64,000 nt of DNA, taken from assembly GCA_024280755.1 (NCBI GenBank), contig JAJRPN010000036.1, positions 62,001 to 126,000 of the forward strand, in the 5' to 3' direction. This document shows positions 242-49,589 of the stretch, piece by piece (positions within the stretch are counted from its first letter, which is position 1; every line of letters begins with the position of its first letter). Origin of the DNA: Planctomycetota bacterium (GTDB lineage: Bacteria; Planctomycetota; Phycisphaerae; Phycisphaerales; UBA1924). Below the pieces are notes generated by a model. The model was not told where the DNA came from, did not search any database, and saw nothing but the letters and a program-made list of their open reading frames with translations. A program made the translations under genes and the position numbers.

Positions 242-285
242 CTTTGACATACTCCTTGTGAGTCATCAAGAGAAGAAAAAACCAA

Positions 286-335
286 GACCTCCTCCGTCTG
301 CTGCGCAGCCACCTCCCCCGCAGGCGCGGGGGAGG
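286..335 (-). repeat. Family A palindromic element, copy 2 (inverted)
   Basis: Reverse orientation: GACCTCCTCC tail complement, then GTCTGCTGCGCAGC, then CCTCCCCCGCAGGCGCGGGGGAGG. The stem bases differ from copy 1 but pairing is kept. Copies 1 and 2 face each other about 45 bp apart between algI and degT. Confidence 0.8.
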
Positions 336-388
336 AGAGTATGCGGGCATCGAAATGTATGGCAAAATAATTGCAGGATAGAAAAAAC

Positions 389-13225: not shown

Positions 13226-13263
13226 AACGCAGAGGCCGCAAAGATCACGCAGAGGTGCAGAGG
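13226..13263 (+). repeat. Left 38-bp inverted repeat (family C) of the GxxExxY cassette
   Basis: It begins AACGCAGAGGCCGCAAAGAT and ends in GTGCAGAGG. Its reverse complement is at 13811-13848 with 36 of 38 matching bases. Solo copies of the same family occur near 20549, 33577 and 39022. Confidence 0.85.
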
Positions 13264-13310
13264 TGCAGAGGTGCAGAGGTGCAGAGGTGCAGAGGTGCAG
13301 AGGTGCAGAG
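13255..13310 (+). repeat. Tandem 8-bp repeat, seven units of GTGCAGAG
   Basis: Seven perfect head-to-tail copies of GTGCAGAG extend the inner end of the left family C repeat. The right repeat has only one unit, so the expansion probably arose locally by slippage. Confidence 0.95.
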
Positions 13311-13337
13311 GGAAGAGTGAGGTAAGAAAGAGAAGAT

Positions 13338-13742: not shown

Positions 13743-13810
13743 CTATTCTCCTTCTTATTCTTTCCCCCTCTTCCCCCTCTTCCAAAGTCTTCCTCCCTCT
13801 TCTCTCCCCC

Positions 13811-13848
13811 CCTCTGCACCTCTGCGTGACCTTTGCGACCTCTGCGTT
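13811..13848 (-). repeat. Right 38-bp inverted repeat (family C) of the GxxExxY cassette
   Basis: Reverse complement of the left repeat at 13226-13263 with two mismatches. It ends 13 bp before the DUF58 start codon, so the 623-bp cassette fills almost the whole gap between the two genes. Confidence 0.85.
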
Positions 13849-18416: not shown

Positions 18417-18430
18417 CCCGGTTTTCCCCA

Positions 18431-18452
18431 ACGAGCCACGACCGTAAGGGAG
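18431..18452 (+). repeat. Family D repeat
   Basis: ACGAGCCACGACCGTAAGGG and two more bases, the reverse complement of the copy at 389-412 with one change. It is directly followed by family A copy 3. Confidence 0.7.
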
Positions 18453-18466
18453 TGTTCTTCTCTTGT

Positions 18467-20548: not shown

Positions 20549-20588
20549 CTCTGCGTCCTCCGCGCCCTCTGCCACCTCTGCGTACAAC
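20549..20588 (-). repeat. Family C solo repeat
   Basis: CTCTGCGTCCTCCGCGCCCT then GCCACCTCTGCGT, in the same orientation as the right repeat of the GxxExxY cassette. It is adjacent to the family B copy at 20511. Confidence 0.7.
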
Positions 20589-33616: not shown

Positions 33617-33665
33617 AAACCTCTTCCTCCCTCCCCTCCCCCAATCCGCTACAATACCCCCAACT

Positions 33666-33745
33666 GCTCGGGGCGCACCCAAATGGATGCTGAGAAGAAC
33701 CCGTAGAACCTGATCCGGCTCGCACCGGCGGAGGGAATGCAGCCA
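33666..33745 (+). promoter_or_regulatory. TPP riboswitch (THI element)
   Basis: Conserved parts are in order: GGGGCGCACCC, then the CTGAGA of the pyrimidine-sensing loop, ACCCGTAGAACCTGATCCGG, and ACCGGCGGAGGGAA. They match the thi-box with P2-P5 arms. It ends about 70 bp before the thiC start, consistent with control of translation start or transcription by thiamine pyrophosphate. Excess TPP should reduce thiC expression. Confidence 0.93.
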
Positions 33746-33812
33746 CCGATCATCCTTATTAGATCGAAGGCCACGCATACTCCCGGTGCTTAACACTTGT
33801 GGAGTATCAAAG

Positions 33813-35963
33813 ATGACCGACCAAACAACCTACCCAAAATCAACACCAGCCCACCTCGCCATCACCTCCCCCGCAGGCAAAGCCGTCGCGCTCACGACCA
33901 AATACAAAACCGCCGACGACATGAAGAACGCCTTCCGCACAGTCCAGCCCGGCCCAGCAATCGCAGGCTCAACAACATTCCCCCTCCCAGTCCACGGCGC
34001 CTACAACCCCGGCACAGACACCACCGCACCAACCCCAGGCTCCTTCGCACACAAACCCGACATCGGAGGCCCATACACCTTCTCCTCCCCCGACACCCCA
34101 GGCATGCCAAAGCCCTCATCAAAAACCGCCTGGGACTTCCTCCCCAAAGACTGGTCAACAACCCTCGCAACATCAACCACTCCCTGTCCCTCCCCCGTCC
34201 CGACGGGGGAGGTGTCTGCGTCCCCGCAGACGGAGGGGGTCCCCTCTTCTATCTCTTATAAAGAAGCCCTCGGCCAATTCCGCACCGTCACCTACCCATC
34301 CTCCTTTACCCCAATCACCCAACTCGAATCCGCACGCCTAGGCATCATCACCAAAGAGATGCACCGCGTAGCCGAACGTGAACCACACCTCACCGCGACC
34401 CAAATCCGCGACGAGATCGCCGCCGGCCGACTCATCATCCCAGCCAACATCCACCACCTCAAAAAGAACCTCGATCCCATGGCCATCGGCCGCGCATCCA
34501 AAACCAAAGTCAACGCCAACATGGGCGCGTCCCCAATCTCCTCAGGCACCGAGCAAGAAGTCGAAAAACTCCAATGGGCCGAGCAATGGGGCGCCGACAC
34601 CGTCATGGACCTCTCCACCGGCGGCGACCTCGACGCATGCCGCCAAGCCATCCTCGAAAACTCCACCGTCCCCATAGGCACCGTCCCCATCTACTCCATG
34701 ATCATCGGCAAAAAAATCGAAGACCTCGATCACGACCTCATCATGGACACCCTCGAAAAACAAGCCAAGCAAGGCGTCGACTACTTCACCATCCACGCCG
34801 GCATCAAACGAGCGCACCTCAAGTTTGTCAAAAACCGAGTTATCGGCATCGTCTCGCGTGGCGGCTCACTCCTCGCCAAATGGATGCTCGTCCACAACCA
34901 AGAAAACATCATGTACACCATGTGGGACGAAATCTGCCAGCTCATGCGCGAGCACGATGTCGCCTTCTCCATCGGCGACGGCCTTCGCCCCGGCGGGCTC
35001 GCCGACGCCACAGACTTCGCACAACTCGCCGAACTCGAAGTCATCGCAGAACTCACCGAACGCGCCTGGACCCACGGCCTCCAAGTCATGGTCGAAGGCC
35101 CCGGTCATGTCCCGTTCGACCAAATCGAATACAACGCCAAACTCCAACGCACCCTCTGCCACGGCGCACCCTTCTATGTCCTCGGCCCCCTAGTAACAGA
35201 TGTCTTCCCCGGCTACGACCACATCACATCCGCCATCGGCGCAACATCCATCGCCTACCACGGCGCATCCATGCTCTGCTATGTCACCCCCAAAGAACAC
35301 CTCGGCCTCCCAAAGAAGGGTGATGTCAAAGAAGGCTGTATTGCTTATAAAATCGCAGCCCACGCCGCCGATGTCGCCCTCGGAATCCCCGGCACTCGTG
35401 ATTGGGACGACGAACTCACCAAAGCACGGGCTGCCCTCAACTGGAACAAGCACTTCGAACTCGCCTTCGACGAAGACACCGCCCGCGCCTACCACGACGA
35501 AGACCTCGATGTAGACACCGACTTCTGCGCCATGTGCGGGCATGACTGGTGCTCCGTCCGCATCTCCATGGAAATCAAAGAGTTCCAATCCGGCAACGCC
35601 GAAGGCTTCGCCCGTGTTGGAGCCGATGGAAAAGTAGGAGCCGCCATAAAATCCGCCGCCCTCACCGAAGAACAAACAAAGATCCTCGAAGCCCGAGGCT
35701 ACCTAAGCCCCGAAGAAATCCACAAACTCGCCAACAAAACTAAAGCCGCCATGACCCCCTCCCCATCTTCCACTCCCCGTCCCTCCCCCGTCCCGACGGG
35801 GGAGGTGTCTGCGTCCCCGCAGACGGAGGGGGTCCCCGAAAAAGCCTCCTGCCACTCCGACTATGTCGACCCACAAGCCGCCCAACAAGCCCAAGGCGAA
35901 GTCCTCGTCCAACTCAACACCGCCCCCGCCCACAACATCGCGAGCGATGATCGGCTAATATAA
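33813..35963 (+). CDS. thiC: Phosphomethylpyrimidine synthase ThiC, carrying two in-frame family A insertions
   Basis: 716 residues from ATG 33813 (TGGAG 8 bp upstream). A radical-SAM-type enzyme turning aminoimidazole ribotide into HMP phosphate for thiamine. Typical ThiC blocks: MGASPISSGTEQEVEKLQWAEQWGADTVMDLSTGG, FTIHAGIKRAHL, SRGGSLLAKW, GDGLRPGG, PGYDHITSAIGA, and the C-terminal Fe-S motif CAMCGHDWC (C572, C575, C580). Two copies of PSPVPTGEVSASPQTEGVP, at about residues 125-143 and 656-674, are translations of 56-bp family A elements. They lie in a linker before the core and in the C-terminal tail past the cluster motif, where a loop insertion could be tolerated. Without them the length is near the family norm. 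Confidence 0.96.
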   Translation: MTDQTTYPKSTPAHLAITSPAGKAVALTTKYKTADDMKNAFRTVQPGPAIAGSTTFPLPVHGAYNPGTDTTAPTPGSFAHKPDIGGPYTFSSPDTPGMPKPSSKTAWDFLPKDWSTTLATSTTPCPSPVPTGEVSASPQTEGVPSSISYKEALGQFRTVTYPSSFTPITQLESARLGIITKEMHRVAEREPHLTATQIRDEIAAGRLIIPANIHHLKKNLDPMAIGRASKTKVNANMGASPISSGTEQEVEKLQWAEQWGADTVMDLSTGGDLDACRQAILENSTVPIGTVPIYSMIIGKKIEDLDHDLIMDTLEKQAKQGVDYFTIHAGIKRAHLKFVKNRVIGIVSRGGSLLAKWMLVHNQENIMYTMWDEICQLMREHDVAFSIGDGLRPGGLADATDFAQLAELEVIAELTERAWTHGLQVMVEGPGHVPFDQIEYNAKLQRTLCHGAPFYVLGPLVTDVFPGYDHITSAIGATSIAYHGASMLCYVTPKEHLGLPKKGDVKEGCIAYKIAAHAADVALGIPGTRDWDDELTKARAALNWNKHFELAFDEDTARAYHDEDLDVDTDFCAMCGHDWCSVRISMEIKEFQSGNAEGFARVGADGKVGAAIKSAALTEEQTKILEARGYLSPEEIHKLANKTKAAMTPSPSSTPRPSPVPTGEVSASPQTEGVPEKASCHSDYVDPQAAQQAQGEVLVQLNTAPAHNIASDDRLI
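34186..34241 (+). repeat. Family A palindromic element, copy 12, inside thiC
   Basis: 56 bp: GTCCCTCCCCCGTCCCGACG then GGGGAGGTGTCTGCG, CCC, CGCAGACGGAGGGGGTC. The hairpin arms are GTCTGCG and CGCAGAC. It has no stop in the ThiC frame. It matches copy 13 base for base. Confidence 0.95.
35779..35834 (+). repeat. Family A palindromic element, copy 13, inside thiC
   Basis: Same 56 bp and same reading frame as copy 12, 1.6 kb downstream. The shared upstream CCACTCCC also extends the similarity by about 8 bp. The two copies are more alike than any other pair except 7/9 and 4/5. Confidence 0.95.
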
Positions 35964-45473: not shown

Positions 45474-45536
45474 AGAAATGGCCGATCCGGCGTTTGCCGA
45501 GTTCGGCCAGGGATGGGTAGTTTGGTGAGGTATTGA

Positions 45537-45611
45537 ACGAGCCGCGACCGTGAGGGAGTGGGTTTGGGAGCACGGCGAAGAGAAGAACACTCCCTTACGG
45601 TCGCGGCTCGT
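45537..45611. repeat. Family D inverted pair
   Basis: Arms of 24 bp at 45537-45560 and 45588-45611 match with one difference (core CCGCGACCGTAAGGGAG). It forms a long hairpin in the gap between the two bactofilin genes. Confidence 0.85.
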
Positions 45612-45624
45612 TGGGAGTCATGGA

Positions 45625-46487: not shown

Positions 46488-49400
46488 ATGGCCAAGTCTA
46501 CTAAAGCGAGATCGAAGAAGAAGTCCTCTAAGCCTTACCGTATGCGGGATGGGTCTTATGAGCCCAGTGAGCAGCAGGTTCTTGCTGCGCGCGTTGGGTG
46601 GTTGGTTCTTGGTGCGCTTTGGATATTTGTGATTGCGGGATTGGTGAGCTTTGATGCGGGGGATAGCCCTTCGCATGCGGTGTGGCCGAACAATGCGAAG
46701 ACTGGGAACTGGACGGGTCCGATTGGTGCGTATATGTCGTATGGGTTGCTTCGGACCTTTGGGTTTGGGGTTGTGATCCCGATGGTGTTTACTGGTGTGA
46801 TGTTGACGCTTCGTTTGATTCGTCGCCCGATGACGCAGCCTGTGGTTCGTGCGATTGGTGCGTTGGTGTTGACGGCGTCGCTTTGTGTATTGCTTGGTGT
46901 GTTGATTCCTGATGGTGGGGCGTTGCCTGGATTGGCGGGCGGGACGCTTGGTGTTGTTGGCGCGGGGATGTTGCTTCCTGCGTTTGCGATGGCGGGGTCT
47001 TTGGTTTGGATTGTTTTGGCGACGATTGTTGGGTTGATTGTTTGCTGTGATAGATATGTTGTGATTGTGCCTGTTGCGATTTGGGGGATGGTTGCGCAGC
47101 GGGTGTTGCCGGCGTTGAGTGTTTCTGGGGTGAAGGCTGGCGAGGTTGCCGGTGCGACGGCGGTGCGTGCGAACGCGGGTGCTGATCGTGCGAGCGAGGC
47201 GGGGCGATTGGTTGGTCGTAAGGCTGGTGGTGGGATGCTTGCGGGGCTCAAGGCGATGTTGAGTAAAAAGCCTGCTCCTGTGATGGTTCGGTTGAACGAT
47301 ATTGACGATGAGATGGTGGAGGTGAAACCGATCGCGGCGCCTGTTATGACGCGTGAAGAAGAGATCGCGGCTCGGCGGAAAGCGAAGCCTCGGCGTACGG
47401 TCAAGCCGGTGCCTCAGCAGCTTGAGGAAGATGATGAGGATGTGGTTGGTGCGCCGCAGGTGTTCTCGCAGGAAGATTTACGTGAGAAGATTGCGAAGCT
47501 TCCGGTACGGTTTGCGCAGCAGAACAAGGAGATGGCGACGGATGACGACCTGGCCGATTTTCAGGATGTGCAGTCGCTTGAGGGGTATAGGTTCCCAACG
47601 ATGGATCTTTTGGTTGAGCCTGAGGTTGGGTTCAATGCCAAGCTTGAGGAGTTGGTTCGGAATCAGGCTGAGGCGTTAGAGCATGCGCTTCAGCAGTACA
47701 AGATTAATGGTGAGGTGGTGGATATTGAATCTGGCCCGGCGATTACGCTGTACCATATCCGTTTAGCGCCGGGGACGAAGGTATCGCAGATCAATGCGAT
47801 TGAGAGCGACCTTGCGCGATCGCTCAAGGCTGTGAATATTCGGGTGGTTGCCAACATGGTTGGTCGCGACACGATTGGTATTGAAGTGCCCAACCCGACG
47901 AAGGAACGGGTGCGTCTGAAGGAACTGATGAGTAATCGTTCGTTGTTTGAGGATATGAAGCTGCCGATGTTCCTTGGGAAGGATGCGGCGGGCGAGCCTT
48001 TGATTAGTGACCTGACGAAGATGCCTCACATGTTGATCGCGGGTACGACTGGTTCTGGTAAATCGGTGTGTATGAACACGATTATCATGAGCTTCCTGTA
48101 TACGAAGAAGCCGAACGAACTCAAGCTGGTTTTGGTTGATCCCAAGATGGTGGAGATGAGCCAGTTTAAGGATATCCCGCATTTGATGTGTCCTGTTGTG
48201 ACGGAGATGCCTAAGGCGGCGGCGATTTTGGAATGGGCGACGACGAAGATGGATGAGCGGTATGAGCTGCTCGCCAAGGCGGGTTGTCGCGATATTGGTG
48301 GGTACAACGAGCTTGAGTGGGATGAGCTCAAGGAGCGGTTGGATATCGAGACCGAAGAGCAGGCGGCAAGAGTGCCTAAGCAGTTGCCTTATATGGTGTT
48401 CATTATTGATGAACTTGCGGATTTGATGATGACGACCAAGGAGGTTGAGGGCGCGATTATTCGTATTGCTCAGAAGGCGCGTGCGGTGGGGATCCATTTG
48501 ATTCTTGCGACGCAACGCCCGCAGGCGAATGTGGTGACGGGTTTGATCAAGTCAAACATGCCTTGTCGTATTGCGTTTAAGGTGGCTTCGGGGATGGACT
48601 CGCGGATTGTGCTTGATCAGAAGGGCGGCGAGTTGCTGCTTGGTCAGGGCGATATGTTGCATTTGTCGCCGACGAGTCATGAGCTGAGCCGGGCGCAGGG
48701 GACGCTTGTTGATGATAAAGAGATTCGCAAGGTTGTGAAGTTCTTGAAGGATATCGCGGCGCCGAGCTTTGAACGGTCGTTGATGCAGGTTAAGGGTGGA
48801 ATGGACTCCGACGAAGAGCGGGTGTTCTTATCTGAGAATAACTCGTCGGCTTCGCTGCAGGCTGCGGAAGAAGATCCGATGTTTGATCGGGCGGTGGAGA
48901 TTGTGTTGGAGACCAAGCGTGGATCGGTATCGCTGTTGCAACGGCGATTGGCGATTGGGTATACGCGGGCGAGCCGACTGATTGATTTGATGGGGATCGC
49001 GGGGATTCTGTCGGATCATAAGGGTTCGGTGGCGCGTGATGTGTTGATCTCGCTTGATGAATGGGATGCGATGAAGGATTTGGTCGCGGAGGATGCGCGG
49101 GTTGCGGAGATGCGTGATCCTGAGGATCCGAGCCAGGAGATGATGTTTGAGGCGCAAGATGAAGAACTAGGCGAAGAAGTAGATGAGGAAGAAGCTCCGT
49201 TTGATGACGAGCCAGTGGCGGCGGTGGAGGTTTTGGGGACGCTTGTAGAAGAGGAAGAACTCGAAGATGAGTATGAGGAAGAAGTTGAGGACGATGATGA
49301 GGATGAAGACGAGGTAGATGAAGTGGGGGAGGCAGAGGAAGATGAGTTAGAGGAGGAAGAGGAAGAGCTTGAAGACGGCGAGGCTGTCGATGAGGAAGAA

Positions 49401-49589
49401 GAGGATGAAGAAGAGGTTGAGTATGAGTATGTCGATGAGGATGGGAACCCGATTGACCCGGCGGATATCGATGAGGATGAGTATGAGGTAGAGGATTCGG
49501 AGGAAGAAGAGGGTGATGAGGAAGATGAGGAGGGGTGTGAATATGAGGATGAGGAGTGTGAGGAGGAAGAGGAGCCGGCGTCTCGGTAA
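46488..49589 (+). CDS. ftsK: FtsK/SpoIIIE DNA translocase with a long acidic C-terminal tail
   Basis: 1033 residues. Four N-terminal membrane segments (about 36-55, 83-105, 120-145, 160-180) anchor it at the division site. The motor has Walker A GTTGSGKS (519-526), VLVDPKMVEMSQF, Walker B FIIDELADLMM and the RAVGIHLILATQRP block. The gamma winged-helix region (DRAVEIVLETKRGSVSLLQRRLAIGYTRASRLIDLMG) recognises orientation sequences. About 140 residues after it are almost all Glu/Asp, an extension not part of ordinary FtsK. The protein moves chromosomal DNA at the closing septum. A strong terminator follows. Confidence 0.95.
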   Translation: MAKSTKARSKKKSSKPYRMRDGSYEPSEQQVLAARVGWLVLGALWIFVIAGLVSFDAGDSPSHAVWPNNAKTGNWTGPIGAYMSYGLLRTFGFGVVIPMVFTGVMLTLRLIRRPMTQPVVRAIGALVLTASLCVLLGVLIPDGGALPGLAGGTLGVVGAGMLLPAFAMAGSLVWIVLATIVGLIVCCDRYVVIVPVAIWGMVAQRVLPALSVSGVKAGEVAGATAVRANAGADRASEAGRLVGRKAGGGMLAGLKAMLSKKPAPVMVRLNDIDDEMVEVKPIAAPVMTREEEIAARRKAKPRRTVKPVPQQLEEDDEDVVGAPQVFSQEDLREKIAKLPVRFAQQNKEMATDDDLADFQDVQSLEGYRFPTMDLLVEPEVGFNAKLEELVRNQAEALEHALQQYKINGEVVDIESGPAITLYHIRLAPGTKVSQINAIESDLARSLKAVNIRVVANMVGRDTIGIEVPNPTKERVRLKELMSNRSLFEDMKLPMFLGKDAAGEPLISDLTKMPHMLIAGTTGSGKSVCMNTIIMSFLYTKKPNELKLVLVDPKMVEMSQFKDIPHLMCPVVTEMPKAAAILEWATTKMDERYELLAKAGCRDIGGYNELEWDELKERLDIETEEQAARVPKQLPYMVFIIDELADLMMTTKEVEGAIIRIAQKARAVGIHLILATQRPQANVVTGLIKSNMPCRIAFKVASGMDSRIVLDQKGGELLLGQGDMLHLSPTSHELSRAQGTLVDDKEIRKVVKFLKDIAAPSFERSLMQVKGGMDSDEERVFLSENNSSASLQAAEEDPMFDRAVEIVLETKRGSVSLLQRRLAIGYTRASRLIDLMGIAGILSDHKGSVARDVLISLDEWDAMKDLVAEDARVAEMRDPEDPSQEMMFEAQDEELGEEVDEEEAPFDDEPVAAVEVLGTLVEEEELEDEYEEEVEDDDEDEDEVDEVGEAEEDELEEEEEELEDGEAVDEEEEDEEEVEYEYVDEDGNPIDPADIDEDEYEVEDSEEEEGDEEDEEGCEYEDEECEEEEEPASR

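What the first reader, a model, noticed from the sequence alone, without database searches (positions are those of the whole stretch)
34186..35834. Two identical palindromic elements translated in frame inside thiC
ThiC carries the peptide PSPVPTGEVSASPQTEGVP twice (about residues 125-143 and 656-674). Each is encoded by a 56-bp copy of family A, a repeat otherwise found in gaps between genes in this window. Both copies are in the same frame, have no stop, and lie in a linker and in the C-terminal tail past the Fe-S site. A palindrome that spreads into genes and is tolerated as a peptide is known in Rickettsia (RPE); this looks like an analogous case in a planctomycete. Nearly all family A copies are open in this same frame, which would ease such insertions.
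Basis: partly seen in the sequence, partly recalled or inferred. Interest (0 to 1): 0.88.

Follow-up and report, generated by a model that had tools for sequence, protein, structure and literature searches.

The report
Mobile palindromes translated inside ThiC
In this bacterium a short, hairpin-forming mobile DNA repeat has landed twice inside a vitamin B1 gene and appears to be read through as extra peptide, one of several conserved enzymes in its group that carry such in-frame repeats in tolerant loops.

Summary
Confirmed. ThiC (33813-35963 +) carries PSPVPTGEVSASPQTEGVP at residues 126-144 and 657-675, encoded by two copies of a two-hairpin element (59 bp identical). The genome (3.02 Mb, apparently a Phycisphaerales MAG) has at least 133 copies; by coding score 7 of 149 hits lie in genes. 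None of 29 aligned homologues has both blocks; the closest, G016, has a diverged copy at site 1. Codons before insert 1, in the core and after insert 2 are under purifying selection in one frame, so ribosomes should read through. The same two loops carry related or unrelated palindromes in other lineages. The family is also in frame in a Kbl/BioF-type gene (palindrome swapped or nested in relatives) and a DinG-type helicase gene. In-frame palindromes are known (Rickettsia RPEs, intragenic REPs), so this is a new variant of a known kind; it lacks their GTAG/CGTC foot, and no transposase flanked by it was found. The ThiC frame is not unusually open. Side finding: 14 of 29 valyl-tRNA synthetase ORFs read (a biased sample) hold a whole REP-type transposase in frame at one linker; two paper searches naming the enzyme showed no report.

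The parts
33659..33754 (+). TPP riboswitch (RF00059) upstream of thiC
   Evidence: 64.4 bits, gathering score 54.3
33813..35963 (+). thiC, phosphomethylpyrimidine synthase, 716 aa from ATG (725 aa from GTG 33786)
34181..34242 (+). Family A element, copy 1, in frame (peptide at ThiC residues 126-144; modelled as a loop between two strands)
   Evidence: (86.1 bits)
35774..35835 (+). Family A element, copy 2, in frame (peptide at ThiC residues 657-675; linker before the conserved C-terminal CHSDY tail)
   Evidence: (84.2 bits)
285..343 (-). Family A copy, not accepted as genic
   Evidence: 62.7 bits
18460..18521 (+). Family A copy, not accepted as genic
   Evidence: 81.5 bits
25991..26052 (+). 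Family A copy, not accepted as genic
   Evidence: 84.9 bits
27099..27160 (+). Family A copy, not accepted as genic
   Evidence: 88.1 bits
28297..28355 (+). Family A copy, first of a tandem pair; loose ORF hit dropped by eye
   Evidence: 76.8 bits
28363..28425 (+). Family A copy, second of the pair
   Evidence: 62.2 bits
29453..29513 (+). Family A variant copy, first of a tandem pair
   Evidence: 56.3 bits
29521..29582 (+). Family A copy, second of the pair; loose ORF hit dropped by eye
   Evidence: 61.8 bits
30769..30830 (+). Family A copy, not accepted as genic
   Evidence: 87.2 bits
43444..43518 (+). Diverged family A-like copy
   Evidence: 33.4 bits

Best explanation
Family A is a non-autonomous mobile palindrome of about 62 bp: two hairpins plus a GGAGGGGGTC tail, with at least 133 copies in this genome. 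Shown: two copies sit in frame in thiC, others in a Kbl/BioF-type gene and a DinG-type helicase gene; relatives have unoccupied sites; the ThiC codons on the far sides of both inserts are constrained in one frame. Inferred: insertions happen widely but persist in genes only when they keep the frame, lack a stop and fall in a tolerant loop, where the Pro/Ser/Gly/Glu-rich peptide hangs out as a disordered segment. Insert 1 entered thiC before the split from G016; insert 2 is later and may have been copied from insert 1. Once a loop carries a palindrome it may be remodelled, swapped or hit again. The enzyme that moves family A is not identified.
For: None of the 29 other ThiC ORFs has both blocks (L054 is cut before site 1). 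G016 (90% aa identity) has a diverged element at site 1 (50.6 bits) and an ordinary 90-nt segment at site 2 against 159 nt here; it groups with G000 on the core DNA tree, 100/100. dN/dS is 0.08-0.42 before insert 1, 0.03-0.18 in the core, 0.05-0.47 after insert 2 where calculable (7 rows, of which L034 and L308 are the same sequence). Among 76 distinct ThiC ORFs with both linkers delimited, perfect stems of 8 bp or more: site 1 6 against 2.2 in codon shuffles, site 2 7 against 0.44, core 35 against 24.8. L314 and L315 carry family A-type elements in frame at site 2 (60.1 and 43 bits); with L031 this takes 3 changes on a quick ThiC tree, so three gains are likely. The Kbl-type site is occupied in 6 of 18 homologues, one of them at a contig end. 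The helicase site is occupied in G000, G014, G016 and empty in G005, G009, G013. In the model residues 122-141 are a low-confidence coil between strands 115-119 and 145-150.
Against: No expression data. The 23 codons right after insert 1 (146-168) are hardly constrained against relatives without the insert (dN 0.60-0.74; dN/dS 0.6-1.1 where calculable; 0.31 against G016). No mobiliser found: of 33 same-genus Y1 transposase matches, none is flanked by family A. No target-site duplication recognised. The C-terminal part of the model is poor (mean pLDDT 61.6), so exposure of site 2 is not shown. Tolerance is inferred from retention, not assays. The helicase insert is patchy on the tree, so gain, loss or gene exchange cannot be told apart.
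Confidence: 0.82

Rival explanations
1. The inserts are kept for a job at the RNA or DNA level (hairpins that pause ribosomes or RNA polymerase, or protect the thi mRNA), and the peptide is a by-product.
For: Predicted hairpins are strong (-32.9 to -40.2 kcal/mol, z -2.1 to -3.2) and pairs are kept by compensatory changes across the family; the gene is riboswitch controlled.
Against: Most ThiC homologues lack them; the same family lies in unrelated genes; G016 has a weakened hairpin 2 at site 1 (read).
Confidence: 0.08
2. The peptides are selected protein parts (linkers or interaction motifs) of ThiC.
For: Both copies use the same frame; the Kbl-type insert persisted through gene divergence and probable transfer.
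Against: The peptide sequence is not kept: other palindromes replace it at the same sites, and close relatives do without it.
Confidence: 0.06
3. The segments are skipped or spliced out (translational bypass or RNA processing), so the peptide is never made.
For: Hairpins at both sites.
Against: The occupied ThiC, Kbl-type and helicase sites read through keep the frame without a stop despite different insert lengths (ORFs were picked by an open frame, so broken copies could be missed).
Confidence: 0.02
4. Assembly artefact: the assembler put repeats into the gene.
For: Some contigs end inside or near these repeats (for example the G009 Kbl-type contig).
Against: In-frame inserts with diverged sequence occur at the same sites in separately assembled genomes (G000, G001, G008, G014, G016, L314, L315).
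Confidence: 0.02

Closest known systems
Rickettsia palindromic elements (RPE) and the Wolbachia counterpart
   Same: Palindromic selfish repeats found between genes and in frame inside conserved genes; the inserted peptide is tolerated (PMC2229807 and PMC10969869, passages seen; the Ogata papers not read, the Wolbachia one seen only as a title in a reference list).
   Different: RPEs are given as about 105-150 bp in those papers, and PMC3733652 says R. conorii RPEs end in CGTC; family A is about 62 bp without such a foot. Here 7 of 149 hits are in genes, against nearly half in R. conorii as told in PMC10969869.
GTAG and CGTC REP families with intragenic copies (Di Nocera 2013, PMC3733652: abstract, passages and section 15 read)
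   Same: Dispersed hairpins, mostly between genes, some inside ORFs, including doubly hit genes, tRNA synthetases and a same-site case (recB of Xanthomonas); REP families reported in Planctomycetes.
   Different: No GTAG/CGTC foot, a two-hairpin unit, no flanked transposase; re-use of the same loops across lineages in ThiC.
Class 3 TnpA-Y1 transposases (PMC6006769: passages and section 27 read)
   Same: The ValS-embedded transposase of this genome has NHVH, WT and a Y----Q motif (YVLDEQ), like the class 3 signature given there; that class is mainly planctomycete.
   Different: YVLDEQ departs from the listed YV[VI][AENY]EQ at two positions; here the gene lies in frame inside valS (that study discarded unexpectedly long proteins as fusions or annotation errors). 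It is not linked to family A.

Membership tests
Rickettsia palindromic element (RPE) | Palindrome of about 105-150 bp | tested here: not met
   Family A unit is about 62 bp
Rickettsia palindromic element (RPE) | In-frame insertion in conserved genes with an encoded peptide | tested here: met
   By sequence only; expression not testable here
Rickettsia palindromic element (RPE) | Terminal CGTC (as told for R. conorii RPE in PMC3733652) | tested here: not met
   GTAG/CTAC/CGTC/GACG in the outer 8 nt: 4 of 132 copies at the 5' end, 0 of 132 at the 3' end
REP (GTAG or CGTC) | Conserved tetranucleotide foot at one end of the hairpin | tested here: not met
   as above
REP (GTAG or CGTC) | High-copy hairpin, mostly between genes | tested here: met
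REP (GTAG type) | Cognate RAYT gene flanked by the repeats | tested here: not met
   All 33 same-genus PF01797 matches looked at with 1.5-2 kb flanks or up to a contig end (17, 16). One-sided copies only: G010:C34 about 1.0 kb away (42.8 bits), G014:C12 about 1.7 kb away inside the helicase gene (65 bits), G012 an 18-bit hit about 0.5 kb away, G000 a pair upstream of valS. A more distant mobiliser is not excluded
ThiC (phosphomethylpyrimidine synthase) | ThiC radical SAM domain with C-terminal CxxCxxxxC motif | tested here: met
   PF01964 591.5 bits; motif at 572-580

The most novel reading that the evidence does not exclude
Loops of essential or conserved proteins act as landing pads: a first in-frame palindrome is tolerated, then serves as a preferred target for more palindromes and finally for a whole transposase. 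In Phycisphaerales this has gone so far that valS repeatedly carries a REP-type transposase, with its catalytic motifs, translated as an internal domain, an intein-like refuge without splicing: the essential gene guarantees expression and punishes frame-breaking loss. The ThiC double insertion is an early stage of the same process.
Probability: 0.22. Interest if true: 0.88.

Novelty: new variant of a known kind. Interest (0 to 1): 0.62.

Why it matters
It extends protein-coding palindromes to a planctomycete order with a comparative series (unoccupied, occupied, swapped and nested sites), which makes the old question of how selfish repeats add segments to proteins testable. It also warns annotators that such peptides are repeat-derived. 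The ValS case suggests that transposases can live as domains of essential enzymes.

Tried and rejected
Rejected: family A moved by a transposase that it flanks (33 of 33 same-genus matches looked at). Rejected: one special open frame. Rejected: the two ThiC copies are uniquely identical; other 100% pairs exist in the genome, though the nearest copy outside thiC is 94%. Weak: flank similarity of the two ThiC copies. One search gave 18 of 25 against 9.4 expected, but 10 of those matches lie within the 68-nt block already counted; beyond the block it is 12 of 25 against 7.3 (about 2% of shuffles reach it). So copying from site 1 to site 2 is only a suggestion. The first codon-score filter missed even thiC and was replaced; of 23 loose hits there I accepted 7 by eye (thiC 2, Kbl-type 1, helicase 1, 3 in a small paralogous family) and dropped 16, mostly gene-edge or low-score ORFs; frame-broken copies would not be seen by this filter. 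and 61 counts included 12 duplicate ThiC rows (the same sequences from two collections); one search repeats the count on distinct rows. A pattern search left several genomes unread at the Kbl-type and helicase sites; reread the Kbl-type ones. On the quick ThiC protein tree site 1 takes 4 changes, that is G000 and G016 apart; the DNA tree of the core joins them at 100/100, and I follow the latter. A Pfam match of the helicase to PF02764 at 18.3 bits, under its cut-off of 27, was disregarded as noise. The AlphaFold model is too weak for site 2.

Full report
What is there. The window lies in G000 (3.02 Mb, 41 contigs, 94% complete). The 19-residue peptide occurs twice, residues 126-144 and 657-675; the DNA is identical over 59 bp and in 67 of 68 positions with the 5' flank.

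The repeat. 27 aligned copies show hairpin 1 CCTCCCCCG(loop)CGGGGGAGG, hairpin 2 of about 7 bp and a GGAGGGGGTC tail. Pairs are kept in 98.5% and 86.8% of cells, with compensatory changes at pairs 21-26 and 41-52. A covariance model lists 150 hits in the genome (the number scored, so a lower bound), 133 at 43 bits or more and none overlapping. With at most 131 candidates scored per genome, 131 match here, 107 in G010, 90 in G006, 84 in G015, 80 in G001, and 0 in G011, G013, G017 and G020 (some hits may be the same element on both strands, as 2 of 26 are in G016). So the family is abundant or absent within one genus, as mobile elements are.

Where copies lie. Of 149 hits with DNA in hand, 23 had an open frame through them with some coding score, and I accept 7 as inside genes: thiC twice; a Kbl/BioF-type acyltransferase (C3:151698); a DinG/YoaA-type helicase, read on the other strand (C8:152222); and three in a small paralogous family, of which the two ORFs scanned have no Pfam match (C2:29395, C2:29792, C21:50177). 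The two enzyme names are best NCBIfam matches below the curated cut-offs (403.7 against 460; 522.9 against 680). By this measure copies are strongly depleted from genes. All six frames of the element are mostly open (113-137 of 144), so an in-frame hit is often translatable whichever way it lands.

Homologues. Of 30 ThiC ORFs aligned none but this one has both blocks. G016, the closest, has a diverged element at site 1 (hairpin 1 with a different apex) and an ordinary segment at site 2; G021, another genus, has an unrelated palindrome at site 1. G000 and G016 group at 100/100 on the core DNA tree of 13 same-genus genes, which fits one gain of insert 1 before their split. With 80 named ThiC loci added, 110 ORFs (98 distinct) were scanned: L314 and L315 carry family A-type elements at site 2 (60.1 and 43 bits), L345, L347/L351 and L046 have other inverted repeats there, and L314 has one at site 1 too. 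On a quick tree the three family A-type occupancies of site 2 take 3 changes (few branches well supported). In 76 distinct ORFs with both linkers delimited, stems of 8 bp or more number 6 against 2.2 expected at site 1, 7 against 0.44 at site 2, and 35 against 24.8 in the core; a few of these, such as L049/L050 at site 1, look like ordinary codons. The two loops are thus used repeatedly, which argues that they tolerate insertion.

Translation. Codons 1-115, the core and the tail after insert 2 evolve under purifying selection in one frame, so the ribosome should pass both inserts. Against this, the 23 codons directly after insert 1 are close to unconstrained except against G016, as expected of a loose loop, but they do not themselves prove translation. 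In the model, residues 122-141 form a low-confidence coil between two strands; site 2 is in a poorly modelled tail.

Other genes. At the Kbl-type site, 6 of 18 homologues are occupied: family A in G000, G001, G016, two elements in G008 with one apparently nested in the other, a different palindrome in G014, and G009, whose contig ends inside the element. On the gene tree of 15 same-genus rows the occupied genes form one group (83/91, not starred) with one change; G016 groups with G001 and G008 at 100/100, although it sits with G014 at 100/100 on the four-gene tree, which included this gene. The likely reading is a single gain, later gene exchange, and remodelling of the palindrome, in frame where read. 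At the helicase site G000, G014 and G016 are occupied while G005 and G009, nearer to G000 on the tree, are empty. In G016, the three hits in conserved genes are among the 11 strongest of its 26 hits (21 of 26 read).

Side finding. The only Y1 transposase match in the genome lies in frame inside ValS (ValS 924.6 bits against a cut-off of 704, Y1_Tnp 31.5 against 23). Of 30 ValS loci fetched, 29 gave an ORF across the linker, and 14 of these carry a transposase there, of at least two kinds. The 30 were the best of 39 matching genomes to a query that contains the transposase, so the share is biased upwards; of the nine genomes not fetched, seven have adjoining match coordinates that leave no room for it. 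HuH and tyrosine motifs are found in all 14 by permissive patterns written after seeing the sequences. In G016 the insert passes the NCBIfam REP-transposase cut-off (87.0 against 80), in G000 it does not (30.5). Omega between inserts is 0.11-0.29 in the 10 of 11 pairs where it could be calculated, but it may reflect constraint before insertion. In the sister genomes G001 and G008 the ValS part upstream of the insert is close (pS 0.28; the part downstream less so, 0.55) while the transposases are not (pS 0.73), so the site seems re-used. Split matches in a wider search suggest more cases (for example G106, G134, G142, list truncated, not verified). Searches naming valyl-tRNA synthetase with REP transposases or in-frame insertion gave no paper holding both, and a search for RAYT fusions listed none; listings only.

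Known or new. In-frame palindromes are known from Rickettsia (PMC2229807, PMC10969869, passages) and intragenic REPs from many bacteria, including doubly hit genes and a same-site case (PMC3733652, section 15). A search for Phycisphaerae with intragenic palindromes listed nothing on this group (8 of 796 listed). Family A fails the terminal tetranucleotide test and the RPE size test, and none of 33 same-genus transposase matches is flanked by it, so I do not file it under either; it works like them. The new points are the host group, the unit, the re-use of the same loops and, beside it, the ValS case.

Noticed in passing
G000:C27:31610-31888 (L061, L092); also L093-L099, L103, L105, L110, L113, L118, L120: A REP-type Y1 transposase lies in frame inside valyl-tRNA synthetase at one linker in 14 of 29 ValS ORFs read (sample biased by the query), of at least two kinds; sister genomes carry different ones.
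   Followed up: partly
L202-L224 (Kbl/BioF-type gene; own copy at L130:1935-3251): Kbl-type gene with an in-frame palindrome that was swapped (G014) or nested (G008); its gene tree conflicts with the four-gene tree, suggesting gene transfer with the insert.
   Followed up: yes
L226-L231 (DinG/YoaA-type helicase): In-frame family A element on the opposite strand, present in G000, G014, G016 but absent in the nearer G005 and G009.
   Followed up: partly
L158:14907-15752, L125:6311-7540, L390, L401: A small paralogous protein family carries family A elements, mostly in its N-terminal linker, in two genomes and in different frames; the two ORFs scanned have no Pfam match.
   Followed up: partly
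380-413, 18430-18463, 45534-45612: Another palindromic repeat family (AACGAGCCGCGACCGTGAGGGAGTG type) in the window; by translation a related-looking sequence flanks the ValS transposase (similarity judged by eye).
   Followed up: partly
13241-13319 and 13804-13848: 8-bp tandem repeat GCAGAGGT and an inverted relative 0.5 kb away; similar sequence near 20558, 33589 and 39026.
   Followed up: no
L303 (G009) and L424 (G014): A separate RAYT gene sits next to the helicase gene in two relatives; not flanked by family A.
   Followed up: partly
49239-49573: Imperfect tandem repeat array with spacing in multiples of 3, 13 copies listed.
   Followed up: no
C3:200, C11:105, C12:103, C9:103 of G000; G009:C45 end: Repeat-model hits lie within about 100-200 bp of several contig ends, so counts in fragmented genomes are likely too low.
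   Followed up: no
G023:C8:9652-10244: An unmatched insert of about 590 nt in the ValS linker of another genus, perhaps a further transposase kind (coordinates; not read).
   Followed up: no
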